A stretch of 64,000 bases of DNA from an uncultured Spirochaetia bacterium (GTDB lineage: Bacteria > Spirochaetota > Spirochaetia > SZUA-6 > Bin103). The first letter of the stretch is position 1. Each line of letters begins with the position of its first letter. The position numbers and the translations under genes were made by a program. Shown here piece after piece: positions 1,291-27,676 of this stretch. The notes under the pieces are model-generated. The model was not told the DNA's origin. It saw only the letters and a list, made by a program, of their open reading frames with translations, and searched no databases. The stretch is taken from positions 1,302,001 to 1,366,000 of the forward strand of contig CATQHW010000002.1 of assembly GCA_958296075.1 (NCBI GenBank). The letters are read 5' to 3'.

Positions 1291-2426
1291 TTCGATACAA
1301 TCCGTGATGCCGAAAGGCGTTGAGCAACCGTGGCAGGTCGACGCGAGCCCGACCAATCCGATACATTCGATACAATCCGTGATGCCGAAAGGCGTTGAGC
1401 AAAGCCTGCCTATCGAGCCCTGCTGGCCGGCGCGGCTTCGATACAATCCGTGATGCCGAAAGGCGTTGAGCAAATCCGGGACTTCGTCGCGGCCGCCGGC
1501 GGCGAGGCGGTTCGATACAATCCGTGATGCCGAAAGGCGTTGAGCAAGCTGAAAGAGCGACGACCTCGGTCCAAGGAGACTCTTCGATACAATCCGTGAT
1601 GCCGAAAGGCGTTGAGCAAACGCCAACCCCAAGAACATGGCCGAATGGTTGCAGTTCGATACAATCCGTGATGCCGAAAGGCGTTGAGCAAAAGGCGCTG
1701 GAGTGCTACGAGTCGCCATCGGGAACCATTCGATACAATCCGTGATGCCGAAAGGCGTTGAGCAAGTGCCTCGCCTGGACCCTACTGGCGCCGGCGACGG
1801 TTCGATACAATCCGTGATGCCGAAAGGCGTTGAGCAAATGCGCAGACGGGCCGCTCAAAGATTCGGATGGCCGGCTTCGATACAATCCGTGATGCCGAAA
1901 GGCGTTGAGCAACGCGCGGAGCATGAAGCGCTGCGCGCTGCGGCGCAGGATTCGATACAATCCGTGATGCCGAAAGGCGTTGAGCAAATGCGGTCCAGGT
2001 ACTTGAGATGCCGTAGGCGCTCTTTTCGATACAATCCGTGATGCCGAAAGGCGTTGAGCAATGCCCGGCCGTTCCGTGCCCTCAACCGGCGTCGTGTATT
2101 CGATACAATCCGTGATGCCGAAAGGCGTTGAGCAAGCCCGGAAGGCGGCGCTGGCGAGTTTCCGCGCATTCGATACAATCCGTGATGCCGAAAGGCGTTG
2201 AGCAAATCAGGAGTGGCGGGAGGCGATGCGGGCGCTGTCGGATCGATACAATCCGTGATGCCGAAAGGCGTTGAGCAACCGACGATATTCGTCAACGGCC
2301 GGGCCGTGGTCGGCGTCGATACAATCCGTGATGCCGAAAGGCGTTGAGCAAATGTCGGGGAACCCGCGGGGCGATCGGAGGCTGAGCCAGTCGATACAAT
2401 CCGTGATGCCGAAAGGCGTTGAGCAC
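1291..2426 (+). CRISPR. CRISPR array, 16 repeats and 15 spacers
   Basis: Sixteen near-identical 36-37 base repeats start with TTCGATACAATCCG and end with GGCGTTGAGCAA. They begin at 1291, 1366, 1437, 1511, 1583, 1655, 1729, 1801, 1876, 1951, 2025, 2099, 2169, 2243, 2316 and 2391. Each contains a short hairpin (GCC-GAAA-GGC). Spacers are unique and 33-39 bases long. Repeats 14-16 lack the first T, and the last ends in GAGCAC instead of GAGCAA, marking the leader-distal old end. The repeat length fits type III, type V or some type I and II systems; the effector is outside the window. Confidence 0.98.
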
Positions 2427-3056
2427 AACAGACGGAGCGGATTGCACGAGCGTCGTTGCCGTGTGTTGGATCCCATATTAAGTCGTTAGAAAGGCAAGGA
2501 ACTGTTCAGAAGCCACCCCGTGGGTAACCAATCCCATCCGGCAGAGCGTAGCCGGCAGCCGGAAGCGAGTCTTGCGTTGGCAGGGGCGACCCTGGCGGCG
2601 AAGCGTAGACAGCGACCGCAGAAGCTGTGTGATGAGCCTCGAAAGAGATTGCTTGCTGGGGCCTTCGTCGTCGACAGGGCGAGGGCAGCACCGCCGTGCC
2701 GATAGGGCTTGGCACGGCGGCCCGGTCGGGGTCGAAGAGCAGGGCAAATGCGGAACGGGTGGCGCAGGAACCTGGGAGAGCTCGTTGTCTCCATGATAGG
2801 AGAGAGCCGGGGGGACGCCGGCATACCAAACGTCCGGGCCTGTGCGGAAGAGCACCCGAGAACGCGCAGGAGCGAACCAGCGGGTGCCGCGTGGTACCGC
2901 CAAGCAAAGGCAACGAAGTGCGGCGGGAAGGGCGACGAGCAGTCTTAGCGCCCCCATAGTACCGAAGAAGCGGGGGAACGGTCGCCGCGCCGGACCCGGT
3001 GGAGGGAAGGAGGGCGTCAAGTCGCAGAACCGCTGCGGGGCAACACGGAGGATGCG

Positions 3057-24200: not shown

Positions 24201-24612
24201 GGCGCTGTCGCGCAGCCGGGGCATCGCGCTGCCCTGGGGGTTGGTGCGCGACGGCATCGCGGCTTCGGCGGCAAGCCGCTGGCTGCGCCTGTCCGACGGC
24301 AGCAGCCCGGTCGACTGCGGCTACGAGGCGTCCGGCGGCCTGCTGCTGGAACGCCCCGGCGGCGATCCGGATCCGTATCGGGTCGAGCCGTCCACCCCCG
24401 GCGGCGCCGTGCTCGAAGGAGAACAGATTCAGGACCTGGCCGACCTGATTCCGCGCCTGCTGTCGGCCAGCGCGGGGGCCGACCTGCGCTTCCAGGTACG
24501 CGTGGTGCTCGACGGCGATCTGCCCCGCGGCGACCGCAACGCCGTCGACGAGCTGCTCGCCGAAGTCTCCGGAGACCTCAAGGCATCGCCCGATGCCGAG
24601 GACCACCGATGA
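21280..24612 (+). CDS. DUF499-domain ATPase of the helicase-methylase-ATPase system
   Basis: This large (1,110-residue) ATPase begins with the DUF499 segment ARGLRPVYEDPERFFTFTYP, Walker A LTYGGGKTHTL (about 87-97), a conserved FDKIDVERG region and a putative Walker B GTLILVDEVLMYARE. The C-terminal half contains helical and winged-helix-like parts (KRLVVGRLIWP-type and PYDLWREGEHARLVKDLAG). DUF499 proteins are consistently encoded next to DUF1156 methylases in defence operons. ATG at 21280 was selected because homology begins there; the frame is open further upstream. The stop overlaps the next methyltransferase start (ATGA). Confidence 0.9.
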   Translation: MSRNTRSKAWHEVVRLKDELRSGELSLAEFAADLHEVTLARGLRPVYEDPERFFTFTYPTHALRELVKDVAGRLAGRSDKAVRQLELTYGGGKTHTLITLYHLFRDPARLPDLPAVREFREHVGAALPHAVPVALCFDKIDVERGIDGVRAPDGSTRTLRHPWSVLAFQLAGADGLRAMHADGRDQERETPPAEPLLVKLIERPQERGLGTLILVDEVLMYAREKAGTDPVWRDRITDFFQYLTQAVAKVDRAAIVASLLATDPNKQRGELGRTLTATLFDVFRRQREEGVQPVRKEEVAAVLRRRFFEPEDIQDPTALRPHVIGVVRELAKLDDATAREGAAAEERFCDSFPFHPDMTDVFYSRWTQLEGFQRTRGILRILATALRAAERWDASPLIGPSALLAAPGQQDVSEAVRELAGVATSEGAGEGNRTEWAPLLEAELAKARDIQNELPALRRGREAEQAVIAVFLHSQPSGHKAHTPELVRMAGSAGPDAIELEKGLRRWREVSWFLDDADAGVDEPAAGAQSLPGSWRLGNRPNLRQMHDEACAQRVTGEAVEARLEQEVLRTKALVEGAEAAGASVHRLPAAPRDVRDDGSFRYVLLGPDAASDAGRPSAVAKSYLDYTTGPDRPRSNRNAVILAVPSRDGLEAARSAVRSLLGWEDVQAQLAGHQVDAVQAERLRRRLQEARSRVPDAVRQAYAVVVTVNERNEVEAFKLAASGRPLFTEIKNHERSRIKETPVDAEALLPDGPYDLWREGEHARLVKDLAGAFARHPRLPKVPLPKILVDTVLKGVERGLLVGRLIWPDGSDRTWWREPVDPAAREDPQLEVCLPAKAELCALFEGLLEPGVLPELWGDAEDDPQVTLREVVEYFGGGRVVRVPKEGYDESHTIPRCAEQEVREAVGCAVKQGTVWLTNGPTSVWKEPIPYGALDPDAVLRPPPEPIAAHELTEDALPGAWKDGRTNGIAVTQALSRSRGIALPWGLVRDGIAASAASRWLRLSDGSSPVDCGYEASGGLLLERPGGDPDPYRVEPSTPGGAVLEGEQIQDLADLIPRLLSASAGADLRFQVRVVLDGDLPRGDRNAVDELLAEVSGDLKASPDAEDHR

Positions 24613-24718
24613 TCGACGTAGACCGCATCCATCACGCCGACGCGTTCGACCTGTTTCCTCTGATCGACGACGAAAGCATCGATCTGATCGTCTGCGACGG
24701 CCCGTATGGCGTTACCAC
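24609..24718 (+). pseudogene. Second DNA methyltransferase, N-terminal part (interrupted)
   Basis: The ATG at 24609 overlaps the DUF499 stop. The 36 visible codons give a beta-class N4/N6 DNA methyltransferase start ending in the catalytic motif, DLIVCDGPYGVTT (DGPY replaces the usual DPPY). The gene is cut after ACCAC at 24718 by a 1.7-kb insert; an unrelated 18 codons follow before a stop at 24771-24773. The body of the enzyme resumes at 26428. It was the last gene of the main operon. Confidence 0.8.
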
Positions 24719-24738
24719 GGGCAGGTCAGGGAGCCGTA

Positions 24739-24801
24739 GGTCGAAACCGCTCCTTCGGGGGCGGTCGCACTGAGGATGAGCTCTCAGTGCCTGATGAGAC
24801 C
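24739..24801 (+). ncRNA. Type II hammerhead ribozyme 1
   Basis: All core elements are in circular-permuted type II order: stem II strand GGTC (24739-24742), GAAA (24743-24746), stem III hairpin CCGCTCC-TTCG-GGGGCGG (24747-24764), the cleavage triplet side T-C (24765-24766), stem I GCACTGAG/CTCAGTGC with an 8-base loop (24767-24790), CTGATGA (24791-24797) and the closing stem II strand GACC (24798-24801). Predicted self-cleavage is after C24766. Every invariant core nucleotide is present. Confidence 0.9.
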
Positions 24802-24837
24802 GGGCGAACATCCGCAAGAGCAGCAAGGACAACGCGT

Positions 24838-24874
24838 CGCACTGAGGATGAGCTCTCAGTGCCTGATGAGACAG
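24838..24874 (+). repeat. Partial hammerhead duplicate (stem I plus CTGATGAGAC)
   Basis: The 36 bases from TCGCACTGAGGATGAG through CTGATGAGAC exactly repeat 24765-24800. The upstream GAAA/stem III part is not recognisable (CGAAC replaces CGAAA and no stem-III pairing was found), so this copy should not cleave by itself. It lies just before the AAGGAG ribosome site of the lipoprotein gene. Confidence 0.75.
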
Positions 24875-24891
24875 CTCGAAGGAGACGAGAC

Positions 24892-25323
24892 GTGAGAACG
24901 AGGCGAGTGATCGAATGGCTGACGGTTGCTGTGGTGGCGATTGCCATGGTGGCGTGCCAGGAGGGTCCGGCGACACCGGCTGCAACCCCTCCTGCCGAGG
25001 AGCCAAAGGAACCGACGACGTTCGGAGCACCAGAGGCTGATGCTGAGGTGCCGGACGCGATCATCTTCCACGAAGGTGCGAGGGTGGGTGCGTTCAAGGA
25101 CGAGACGCTGCACTGGGGAGGTGAGCGAGTAAGGGTGAGCTACGACGATTCGGACAGGAGTGTTCAGGGTACGTCGTACAGCGTCACACATGGTGGCAAC
25201 ACGTACAGCACGATTGTGGTGCACTGGGCGAGTGGATCGCGGCTTCACCATCTGAAGGGAGAATGCTCCGAGGGCGATCGTCACCAGCACGTTCACGGTT
25301 CTGTATGGTTTGACGGATGTTGA
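24892..25323 (+). CDS. Lipoprotein-like secreted protein of the ribozyme cassette (5' part)
   Basis: GTG at 24892 is preceded by AAGGAG six bases away. The product has a lipoprotein signal (VIEWLTVAVVAIAMVACQ, lipobox Cys22), a proline/threonine/glutamate-rich linker and a small domain with GTSYSVTHGGNTYSTIVVHW. After HHLKGE the frame runs through a short, unlikely tail to the stop at 25321. In the adjacent frame a natural continuation (ENAPRAIVTSTFTVLYG) reads on into the next ORF, so one longer gene broken at about 25256 by a one-base shift is likely. No known family was recognised. Confidence 0.65.
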   Translation: MRTRRVIEWLTVAVVAIAMVACQEGPATPAATPPAEEPKEPTTFGAPEADAEVPDAIIFHEGARVGAFKDETLHWGGERVRVSYDDSDRSVQGTSYSVTHGGNTYSTIVVHWASGSRLHHLKGECSEGDRHQHVHGSVWFDGC

Positions 25324-26125
25324 GGAGGTTGACCAGGCGATATTGGATGCGCTGCCTGCTGATCCTCCTGCTGAGGAGCTTGGTGAGCCGACTTCTGCTC
25401 CGACTGGTGGTGATCCGCCGACTGATCCACCTACTGTCGATGATCCGCCGACACCTACTCCGGTTGATCCTCCTCCTCCTGAGCCTCCTGAGGAGCCGTC
25501 GTGTATCAATCCATTCCCGGCGGATGGAGCTATCGTAGACGACTACCATGACCTGACTTGGAGCTGTACTCCGGTGATACCGGAAGGTTGGCCGGAACCT
25601 ACGATAAGGAATCGGTATGCCTTCTTGGTGGCTGCTGATAATCCGCTACAGCATGCTGAGCCAGGGATTTCGGCAAACTACTTCAAGTACTATACGCCGA
25701 CTCCTAAGCACAAGGAGCCAGCGATGCAACCTGGAAGGACGTGGTACTGGAGAGTGGACATTGATGGTGTTGAAGGAGAGGAGTGGTCGTTCACTACAAA
25801 GGCGCTCCCGCCTCCGCTCATTCACAGTCCTTCTCCGGGAAACTATAACATCATTCCGAGGGTATCTCCCGTGACTTTGAGTTGGGAGATGGATGATCCT
25901 GTTCGGTTTCGGTCGGTTAGGGTGAGGTGGTGGGGCTCTGCTCGAATCGGCGGGTCATTCTGTGAAGACGGCGGTCCTGACACGACTGAGTGTATCGTAT
26001 CACTCCCCAGAAGCGTCGTCAGACCACATAAGCAAGTCGAATGGTGTGTGTTCGGCACTAAAGGTGAAGACGGGGAAGAGGTTCGCGAGTGCTTCGTGTT
26101 CATCTATGACTATCAGGACCCGTAG
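25310..26125 (+). CDS. Proline-rich secreted protein, probably the 3' part of the cassette lipoprotein
   Basis: The 271-codon frame has an acidic helix (VEEVDQAILDALPADPPAEE), a long proline-rich linker, then two beta-rich, FnIII-like segments (DYHDLTWSCTPVIPEGWPEP, WYWRVDIDGVEGEEWSFTT; then PVTLSWEMDDPVRFRSVRVR). It has no signal peptide and only a TTG start without ribosome site, so it is best read as the continuation of the lipoprotein begun at 24892. The domain pattern suggests surface binding rather than catalysis. Its stop lies just at the start of the second ribozyme. Confidence 0.6.
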   Translation: MTDVEEVDQAILDALPADPPAEELGEPTSAPTGGDPPTDPPTVDDPPTPTPVDPPPPEPPEEPSCINPFPADGAIVDDYHDLTWSCTPVIPEGWPEPTIRNRYAFLVAADNPLQHAEPGISANYFKYYTPTPKHKEPAMQPGRTWYWRVDIDGVEGEEWSFTTKALPPPLIHSPSPGNYNIIPRVSPVTLSWEMDDPVRFRSVRVRWWGSARIGGSFCEDGGPDTTECIVSLPRSVVRPHKQVEWCVFGTKGEDGEEVRECFVFIYDYQDP

Positions 26126-26188
26126 CCGAAACCGCGTCCTTCGGGGCGCGGTCGTACCAGGGTTGAGCGCCTGGTGCCTGATGATGGT
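26123..26188 (+). ncRNA. Type II hammerhead ribozyme 2
   Basis: The order is the same as the first: GAAA (26128-26131), stem III CCGCGTCC-TTCG-GGGCGCGG, T-C (26152-26153), stem I GTACCAGG...CCTGGTGC, CTGATGA (26178-26184). Stems I and III differ in sequence from ribozyme 1 but keep pairing (covariation), which supports function. Stem II is weak here: CC before GAAA pairs with GG only if U26185 bulges. Predicted cleavage is after C26153. It overlaps the end of the upstream gene by three bases and directly precedes the next gene. Confidence 0.8.
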
Positions 26189-26206
26189 AGCTCAAGGAGA
26201 CGTCGG

Positions 26207-26422
26207 ATGATGAGGTGGGTCGTTCAACTCCCCGAGGATGATGGAGGTTGGCGTAATGGGCTCTGGTTCCATAGCGAGCGGCTTGCGAGGTCGCACGTCG
26301 ATCGCACGCTTCACCTGGCTGAGCACTTCGGCGAACCAGTTCCGAGGCGCAGGATCATGCGCAGTGAGGGGGCTGATATGGAGTTTGTGGCTGAGTATGG
26401 AGTGGAGGGAAACGAGGATTGA
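26207..26422 (+). CDS. Small cassette protein of unknown function
   Basis: A 71-residue soluble, charged protein (MMRWVVQLPEDDGGWRNG ... FVAEYGVEGNED). ATG at 26207 or 26210 follows AAGGAG at a good distance, and the ribosome site sits 7 bases past the hammerhead, so cleavage would leave the site on the 3' fragment. No family was recognised. The stop codon is the last thing before the ACCAC junction that ends the insert. Confidence 0.6.
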   Translation: MMRWVVQLPEDDGGWRNGLWFHSERLARSHVDRTLHLAEHFGEPVPRRRIMRSEGADMEFVAEYGVEGNED

Positions 26423-26427
26423 ACCAC

Positions 26428-27100
26428 AGATACGCCGTGGATGTACAACAAGTGGGACCGGATCGGCAACATACAGGAGTACAACCTCAATCTGATCCGC
26501 ATATTTTCCAGAAGTTGAAATGCGGAGGAGCCTTGTATCTGTTCGGGAAGCCGGATTGCATCGACTTCATAGACTATCGTCCGTACCTGAACATCAGAGC
26601 CAGAATCGTATGGTATCAGCCGAGCCGACTCGCCCAGGGACGGATCAGCTATACCAACAACTACGACGTCATCTGCTACTTCATCAAGGGCGACCGCCCC
26701 AACACCTTCAATCTCGATTCGATTCGCGTACCGCAGCTCGTAGAGCTGAACCACCGTCTACGGTGTGAACGCGTTCCGTCAGTCAGAAACGGGAAGTACG
26801 GAAAGACCAAGTTCAACGAAGCGGGGAAGAATCCGGGTGATGTATGGGGAGACGTCAAGCAGCTCACCTACAAGTCGAAGGAGCTCGTCAGTCGTGACGT
26901 TCTCAATACGATTCAGAAGCCGGAGCAGCTCATCGAGCGGTTGGTAAACGCCAGCTCGTGCGAAGGCGACCTGGTGCTCGATCCGTTTGCCGGCGTAGGC
27001 ACCTGCCCCGCAGTATGCAAACGCCTCGGCCGCCGCTTCATCGGCATCGAAAGAGACGAGGAATTGGTAAGGTCGGCACAACACCGACTGCGGCAAGTCG
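26428..27100 (+). pseudogene. Second DNA methyltransferase, C-terminal part with frameshift
   Basis: Homology resumes with TPWMYNKWDRIGNIQEYNLN, is broken by an extra T in the TTTT run at 26504-26507, and continues in the next frame with KCGGALYLFGKPDC, SRLAQGRISYTNNYD, then the SAM-binding motif DPFAGVGTCPAVCKRLGRRF. DGPY first and FxGxG last is the beta-class methyltransferase order. The 3' end near HRLRQVG is immediately followed by IS256 sequence, so a short tail may be lost. Insert plus frameshift make it a pseudogene unless the extra T is a sequencing error. Confidence 0.8.
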
Positions 27101-27635
27101 GCGCTGCTGGTGGCGATCGGGGGGCTTGCCGATGGGCGCAAGGTGCTGATCGCGCTGCGCAGCGGGTACCGGGAGTCGTCGGAGAGCTGGAAGGGTCTGC
27201 TGCGCGACCTGCGGGAGCGCGGGCTGCGGTGCCCTCATCTGGTGGTCGGCGACGGCTATCTGGGCATCTGGGCGGCGCTCACGAAGATGTGCCCGGAGGC
27301 TGATAAGCAACGGTGCTGGAAACATAAGCAACGGTGCTGGAAACACCGGATGGTCAACGTGCTCGATCAGGTGCCGAAGCGCAGCCAGGAGCAGGTGAAG
27401 CAGAAGCTGCGGCAGGTCGCCTGCGCACCGCCGCTCGCGCAGGCCGAGCGGCAAGGGGGAGGTTTTGAACGCTGGGCTGGGCGCGAGCAGGAGCGGGCGG
27501 CGCGGCTGCTCGATGACGACTGGGAGCGGATGGTGAGCTACTACCGCTATCCGCAGGCGCACTGGCGGCACTTGCGCATGACGAAACGTGATCGAGTCGC
27601 CGTTTGCGGCGCTGCGGCTGCGCACGGACGCTGCG
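27101..27635 (+). pseudogene. IS256-family transposase remnant
   Basis: The frame contains the mutator-type transposase core: IGGLADGRKVLIALRSGYRES, LVVGDGYLGIWAAL (catalytic Asp), QRCWKHRMVNVLDQVPK and DWERMVSYYRYPQAHWRHLR. The N-terminal third is absent. A 21-base segment encoding KQRCWKH is duplicated in tandem, and an extra A near 27586 shifts the frame before VIESPFAALRLRTDAA. The end has been replaced by the AIPR promoter region. It is clearly inactive. Confidence 0.85.
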
Positions 27636-27647
27636 AATTCTCACCTG

Positions 27648-27676
27648 TTGACAAGACCTCCTTGTGCCGTTAGAAT
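27648..27676 (+). promoter_or_regulatory. Consensus promoter giving a leaderless AIPR transcript
   Basis: A perfect -35 TTGACA (27648-27653), a 17-base spacer and -10 TAGAAT (27671-27676) are followed after six bases by the AIPR start codon at 27683. Transcription would start at or next to the A of ATG, so no ribosome binding site exists on the transcript. Confidence 0.8.

What the first reader, a model, noticed from the sequence alone, without database searches (positions are those of the whole stretch)
24719..26427. A cassette element with hammerhead-ribozyme-preceded genes inserted in a methyltransferase
Two type II hammerheads with intact cores each sit just upstream of a small gene with an AAGGAG ribosome site. 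The whole 1.7-kb block is bounded by ACCAC and splits a DNA methyltransferase so that removal restores the frame. No mobility protein is encoded. A ribozyme-gene unit repeated head to tail suggests a cassette class that could be spread in trans, perhaps as cleaved RNA copied by a reverse transcriptase or as DNA by a recombinase. I know of no described element with this organisation.
Basis: partly seen in the sequence, partly recalled or inferred. Interest (0 to 1): 0.9.

Follow-up and report, generated by a model that had tools for sequence, protein, structure and literature searches.

The report
Stray ribozyme-punctuated gene array fragment
A 1.7-kb block of DNA, in which self-cutting RNA motifs (hammerhead ribozymes) sit between genes, has landed inside a DNA-methyltransferase gene of a bacterium; its layout matches gene arrays seen in phage genomes and looks like a decaying fragment of one rather than a new self-spreading cassette.

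Summary
The observation largely holds. Two type II hammerheads lie at 24736-24801 and 26121-26188, and a 1709-bp block flanked by ACCAC interrupts a DNA methyltransferase; homologues read are uninterrupted. Hammerhead 1 has lost its pseudoknot tail to a partial duplication, its gene is a frameshifted lipoprotein-like gene rather than a small one, and only hammerhead 2 directly precedes a small gene. The genome has two more such islands; one also carries a Twister-P5 ribozyme at a gene junction. The same architecture is found in phages: 482 structurally valid type II hammerheads in 274 viral loci picked by hammerhead patterns, 295 of them tightly between a stop codon and the next ribosome site (opposite strand: 3 of 482). 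Cultured Streptomyces phage R4 has nine in the 15 kb read. Clusters of hammerheads flanking single prophage genes were reported in 2011 (PMC3088659) and read as possible transcript-processing sites. Island ends cut genes at differing points, share no boundary and were not at cleavage sites; a test for cleavage-site-bounded units in phage arrays was negative. So the cassette idea is not supported. Best reading: a captured, decaying fragment of a ribozyme-punctuated operon. R4 makes the function of such arrays testable.

The parts
24609..24718 (+). 5' part of an N6/N4 DNA methyltransferase gene, start overlapping the end of the HmaC-like gene
   Evidence: joined query finds uninterrupted homologues
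24714..24718 (.). left ACCAC
   Evidence: sequence
24719..26427 (.). inserted block, 1709 bp, GC 0.58 against 0.72 in the 3 kb to its left (but 0.55 in the methyltransferase part to its right)
24719..24739 (+). last six codons and stop of a truncated upstream gene (GQVREP*); stop ends 3 nt before GAAA
   Evidence: spacing as in phage arrays
24736..24801 (+). type II hammerhead 1, core intact, pseudoknot tail displaced
24836..24872 (+). second copy of the 3' half of hammerhead 1 (37 nt identical), starting at the GTC triplet
24892..26125 (+). lipoprotein-like gene, broken by a frameshift into 24892-25323 and 25310-26125
26121..26188 (+). type II hammerhead 2, core intact, with an extra T after CTGATGA as in 161 of 482 viral hammerheads
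26190..26195 (+). pseudoknot partner of loop I of hammerhead 2 (6 nt complementarity)
26207..26422 (+). small gene, 71 aa, no Pfam match
26423..26427 (.). right ACCAC
   Evidence: sequence
26428..27066 (+). 3' part of the methyltransferase (PF01555), with a further frameshift near 26500

Best explanation
The block is a short, decaying fragment of a ribozyme-punctuated operon, of the architecture seen in phages, captured into the chromosome inside a methyltransferase gene. In the intact parent array a self-cleaving ribozyme (type II hammerhead, in one sister island also twister) occupies a junction between a stop codon and the next ribosome-binding site. On transcription each ribozyme cuts the polycistronic RNA once, giving shorter, often single-gene mRNAs that begin with a 5'-OH and the stem I hairpin just before the ribosome site and end in the stem III hairpin with a cyclic phosphate. 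Shown here: structure, position, strand, pseudoknot, insertion. From established hammerhead chemistry: the kind of RNA ends. Inferred: cleavage of these copies, any effect on mRNA use, and capture by microhomology or end joining.
For: In 274 viral loci fetched by hammerhead patterns there are 482 structurally valid type II hammerheads; one resampled copy of each locus gives 0. All 103 loci with two or more have them on one strand. 295 of 482 lie tightly between a stop codon and the next ribosome site plus start, against 3 of 482 on the opposite strand and 24 of 2410 random positions. The window's second junction has this spacing (stop, 2 nt, GAAA; start 22 nt after the core). Loop I can pair with the tail in 361 of 482 against a mean of 118 (maximum 141) in 50 permutations. 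Three cultured Streptomyces phages, R4, Spernnie and Alvy, have 9, 8 and 10 hammerheads in the 15-kb stretches read, by Rfam cut-off and by the finder. Two further islands in the same genome show the same plan, one with a Twister-P5 at 49.2 bits, over its cut-off of 37.6. Ends cut genes: six codons plus stop at the window's left end, eight codons of a next gene at the right end of the C3 island. One C3 island protein matches a PHROGs family at E 2.6e-6. Clustered prophage hammerheads cleave in vitro and one set in E. coli (PMC3088659, section seen).
Against: 'Phage' rests mostly on architecture: two island proteins had no match in 50,697 phage records, a third only a 24-residue match in one viral contig that has no hammerhead by the finder in the 5.7 kb held, and eight of nine island-region proteins have no PHROGs match below E 0.001. 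Several island genes have signal peptides by eye. No other ribozyme class reached its cut-off in 21 viral or phage array loci scanned, so the twister-hammerhead mix of the C3 island is not typical of them. The viral loci were picked by hammerhead patterns, so about one hammerhead per locus is there by construction. 187 of 482 do not meet the tight junction limits. The window's island is not extreme in GC: about a tenth of equal-sized pieces of the window are as low. No strain without the insert was available at DNA level.
Confidence: 0.67

Rival explanations
1. A ribozyme-bounded gene cassette that moves as a unit in trans, as cleaved RNA copied by a reverse transcriptase (retrozyme-like) or as DNA by a recombinase.
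For: Three islands in one genome, two of them inside other genes; a 5-bp flanking repeat in the window; the duplicated half hammerhead begins at the cleavage triplet; the C2 island appears to run from one hammerhead to the next (my estimate of its ends); a group II intron domain lies in the window.
Against: None of the four fixed island ends lies at a cleavage site and no two agree. In 79 homologous unit pairs from viral arrays, stem I of the upstream ribozyme is kept better than stem III in 26 of 42 pairs with an unrelated upstream neighbour (14 the other way), and the reciprocal downstream test goes the wrong way, 15 against 21 of 37. No terminal inverted repeat, no mobility family in the window's block, no second copy of the block in the genome.
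Confidence: 0.1
2. The remains of a phage or satellite that integrated at each site and lost all but a few genes, rather than captured fragments.
For: The genome has a separate hammerhead in what I read as a Mu-like remnant; one C3 island protein has a PHROGs match.
Against: Read without the islands, the window's methyltransferase is in frame and aligns with homologues, and the C3 host protein aligns across the joint with 11 of 25 relatives; so there is no attachment-site remnant or loss of target to be seen. No integrase found.
Confidence: 0.17
3. Chance resemblance: hairpins with a hammerhead-like core but no ribozyme history.
For: Hammerhead 1 scores below the Rfam cut-off.
Against: Exactly two finder hits in the window against 0 in 2.5 Mb of resampled sequence; pseudoknot in hammerhead 2 and viral-type junction spacing.
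Confidence: 0.02

Closest known systems
Clustered hammerheads flanking single genes or gene blocks in prophages (Perreault et al. 2011, PMC3088659; passages and one section seen)
   Same: Type II architecture with a loop I-tail pseudoknot; several ribozymes at gene junctions; genes that change from case to case; proposed processing to single-gene or operon-length mRNAs.
   Different: Here the array is a 1.7-kb fragment with no recognised phage gene, inside a host gene, and partly decayed; one sister island has hammerhead and twister.
Hammerheads near Mu-like phage genes (association stated in PMC10085705, passage seen)
   Same: Same Rfam family; one lies in the same genome (C3:550950, 65.2 bits). 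That paper's passage also says that self-cleaving ribozymes are enriched near other self-cleaving ribozymes.
   Different: That copy is a single ribozyme in what I read as a phage gene block. Island copies are 54-78% identical to each other; model R1 separates four of them from it, but was built from those four, and the two defective island copies score no better than it.
Retrozymes (PMC7761336, passages seen)
   Same: Hammerheads flanking a unit; short flanking repeat.
   Different: Plant retrozymes have a non-coding centre and hammerheads in direct repeats and spread as RNA circles; the island codes for proteins and its fixed ends are not at cleavage sites.

Membership tests
Type II hammerhead ribozyme | Core GAAA, UH at the cleavage site, CUGANGA; stems I and III closed, stem II open | tested here: met
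   Both copies
Type II hammerhead ribozyme | Pseudoknot between loop I and the 3' tail (majority feature) | tested here: inconclusive
   Met in hammerhead 2 (6 nt); absent in hammerhead 1, whose tail now follows the half copy
Type II hammerhead ribozyme | Self-cleavage | not testable with these tools
   No bench work
Phage/prophage hammerhead array | Several ribozymes in one direction at gene junctions | tested here: met
   Window and two sister islands; spacing as in viral loci
Phage/prophage hammerhead array | Lies in a phage or prophage | tested here: not met
   No Pfam match and only weak PHROGs matches (E 0.009-0.07) for the window's three ORF stretches; one C3 island protein does match a PHROGs family
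Retrozyme or RNA-circle element | Unit ends at the ribozyme cleavage site | tested here: not met
   Four fixed ends (window, C3) read; the C2 island's ends only estimated
DNA transposon | Terminal inverted repeats and transposase | tested here: not met
   Window block: 3 of 15 terminal positions match, longest shared stretch 4 nt in 40; no transposase family inside. Sister islands not tested for repeats
Integron gene cassette | attC sites and integron integrase | not tested
   No dedicated search was run

The most novel reading that the evidence does not exclude
Ribozyme-gene units, with hammerhead and twister interchangeable at the junctions, are a dispersible accessory-gene pool that moves between phages and into host chromosomes without a mobility gene of its own, using the ribozyme junctions as recombination-tolerant seams; the three islands of this genome are captures from it.
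Probability: 0.12. Interest if true: 0.8.

Novelty: new member of a known kind. Interest (0 to 1): 0.4.

Why it matters
The window itself is a fossil. What it led to matters more: in many viral contigs type II hammerheads mark gene junctions one after another, with a tight stop-ribozyme-ribosome-site spacing and a pseudoknot. What such ribozymes do in bacteria and phages was still called open in 2017 and unknown in 2023 (PMC6155905 and PMC10085705, passages seen). Streptomyces phage R4, a cultured phage recorded from S. coelicolor, has nine in the stretch read, so the question can be tested by inactivating ribozyme cores in a laboratory phage and following mRNA ends and protein output. The islands show that such fragments can sit in bacterial chromosomes and break host genes, here at the end of a Hma-like defence cluster.

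Tried and rejected
RNA-intermediate or cleavage-site-bounded cassette: both ribozyme halves were compared around homologous genes in viral arrays. 98 unit pairs were found among 213 units; 79 were used after leaving out pairs at 99.5% identity or more and pairs with short flanks. Upstream 26 against 14, downstream 15 against 21; the pairs are not independent. Not in favour.

Second copy of the block in the own genome: none; the only other DNA match is one hammerhead. Model R1 in the own genome: seven matches below E 1e-6, six of them island-type; eleven weaker ones (E 0.005 to 0.5) were not followed. R1 in the class: 2 of 394 genomes, the own one and G088. Rfam model in relatives: 4 of 98 genomes; the three others look like Mu-like or phi29-like phage contexts by my reading, not by a family search. 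Genome collection pattern scan: 4 stretches, 0 of 4 pass the finder or the Rfam cut-off. Tail-motif scan of viral contigs: 2 stretches, 0 of 2 pass. A stem-III pattern typical of the islands: 4 stretches, each with hammerheads, but no island genes recognised (their genes were not compared). Own-genome search for AGCTCAAGGAGA: 4 exact places, two in islands, two that I read as coding. C2 island gene: 1 of 26 genomes, the own one. Window gene 25310-26122: 2 of 26, with one weak partial match in G009 and one in the own genome besides itself. Family searches left the island genes without function.

Confidence in the best explanation was lowered slightly because ends of only two islands are fixed.

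Full report
What is there. The 1709-bp block 24719-26427 lies between two ACCAC copies inside an N6/N4 DNA methyltransferase gene (24609 to about 27066). Read without the block, the protein runs ...DGPYGVTTDTPWMYNKWDRIGN... in one frame. The joined query has matches in 397 plasmid records, 146 with one place covering at least 80% of it; the eight rows listed are single pieces. Four homologues aligned residue by residue pass the joint with small gaps only. The methyltransferase also has a later frameshift. It follows HmaA/HmaB/HmaC-like genes and precedes, after a transposase-like remnant, an AIPR/AbiU-like gene.

Inside the block, in order: the last six codons and stop of a truncated gene, hammerhead 1, a second copy of its 3' half (37 identical nt from the GTC triplet on), a lipoprotein-like gene broken by a frameshift, hammerhead 2, and a 71-codon gene whose stop ends right before the second ACCAC. 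Hammerhead 2 scores 47.1 bits with Rfam against a cut-off of 37; hammerhead 1 scores 27.1. A model built from four island copies scores both near 80 bits, but that is by construction. A structural finder of my own finds exactly these two in the window and none in one Markov-resampled copy of each of 274 viral loci. RNA folding gives the hammerhead fold for both.

Sister islands. In the 4.05-Mb genome the model finds six island-type matches below E 1e-6, two of them defective (one half copy, one broken core), plus one hammerhead in what I read as a Mu-like remnant. They fall at three loci: the window, C2:1254086-1254891 and C3:831997. The C3 island (L006, minus strand, about 8180 to 6410) reads: gene tail, Twister-P5 (49.2 bits, cut-off 37.6), two genes, hammerhead, gene, a junction where only the ribozyme's tail remains, and eight codons of a further gene. 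It interrupts a protein whose homologues in 11 of 25 relatives align across the joint. The C2 island's target and exact ends were not established. A C2 island gene and a C3 island gene are homologous, 26% identity, E 4e-7. GC is 0.58, 0.55 and 0.56 in the islands; flanks are 0.72 (left of the window's block), 0.71 (C3) and 0.71 (left of C2). But the methyltransferase right of the window's block is 0.55, the 3 kb right of the C2 island is 0.62, and about a tenth of equal-sized pieces of the window are as low as its island.

What it resembles. A pattern scan of viral contigs gave 37 stretches; two further patterns stopped at their limit of 120. In all 274 loci the finder sees 482 type II hammerheads; 26 loci have none. 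103 loci hold two or more, none on both strands. The stop codon of an upstream frame ends at a median of 3.5 nt before GAAA (428 of 482 with such a frame), and a start with a ribosome site lies at a median of 28 nt after the core (393 of 482). With tight limits 295 of 482 fit both, against 3 of 482 on the opposite strand and 24 of 2410 random positions. Loop I can pair with the tail in 361 of 482, permuted mean 118. An extra nucleotide after CTGANGA, as in hammerhead 2, occurs in 172 of 482, T in 161. Loci were fetched by hammerhead patterns, so about one per locus is by construction; the extra ones and the placement are not. Some loci are overlapping or near-identical contigs. Cultured relatives of two arrays are chiefly Streptomyces phages; a third array had no match. 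R4, Spernnie and Alvy have 9, 8 and 10 hammerheads over the Rfam cut-off in about 15 kb each. In these and 18 further array loci no other ribozyme class reached its cut-off, so the mixed C3 island is not typical of them.

Mechanism. In an intact array each ribozyme would cut the transcript at its junction. Others showed such cleavage for three clusters in vitro and for one in E. coli (PMC3088659, section seen); they also name other possibilities, such as inactive copies or spliced or circular products, which they did not detect. The window's copy is decaying: displaced pseudoknot at hammerhead 1 and frameshifted genes here; one broken core and one missing ribozyme in the sister islands. How the fragments entered is inferred: the fixed ends differ, the flanking repeat is 5 bp in one case and 2 bp by my reading in the other, and no terminal inverted repeat or mobility family was found in the window's block; this fits capture by microhomology or end joining better than a dedicated element.

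Cassette test. Homologous units occur beside unrelated neighbours (42 of 79 pairs upstream, 37 of 79 downstream), so arrays are mosaic. But breaks do not favour the cleavage site. The cassette claim is kept only as the novel case.

Literature. Searches: of an open-access library. I saw passages of PMC3088659, PMC6155905, PMC10085705 and PMC7761336, and one section of the first; of the other papers only the listing. By title and start of abstract none of the rows listed there deals with non-prophage islands of this kind or with hammerheads in R4; unlisted papers, supplements and papers outside the library could.

Noticed in passing
window 1291-2741: A CRISPR-like repeat array (16 sub-threshold Rfam repeat matches between 1291 and 2426) is followed by a group II intron D1-D4-6 match at 2528-2741 (138 bits).
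   Followed up: no
window 8997-29437: Hma-like defence cluster: HmaA-like helicase, NsnB-like AAA protein, PDC-M71A-like kinase, HmaB-like DUF1156 methylase, AAA_21 protein, HmaC-like ATPase; then the broken methyltransferase and an AIPR/AbiU-like gene.
   Followed up: partly
L333, L334, L335 (Streptomyces phages R4, Spernnie, Alvy): 9, 8 and 10 type II hammerheads over the Rfam cut-off among small genes; one overlaps the annotated start of an OCR-like antirestriction gene in R4, and one found by the finder alone lies just upstream of a DNA methylase gene in Spernnie.
   Followed up: partly
L005:6948-7018: A hammerhead (65.2 bits) in what I read as a Mu-like remnant in the same genome, followed by a transposase-like gene.
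   Followed up: no
L006:6440-6465 (minus strand): A gene junction that keeps the ribozyme's tail and the ribosome site but lacks the hammerhead itself, as if it had been lost by slippage across its own base.
   Followed up: no
window 27110-27673: Transposase-like remnant (by reading) with an exact 21-nt tandem duplication at 27303-27344, at the end of the broken methyltransferase.
   Followed up: no
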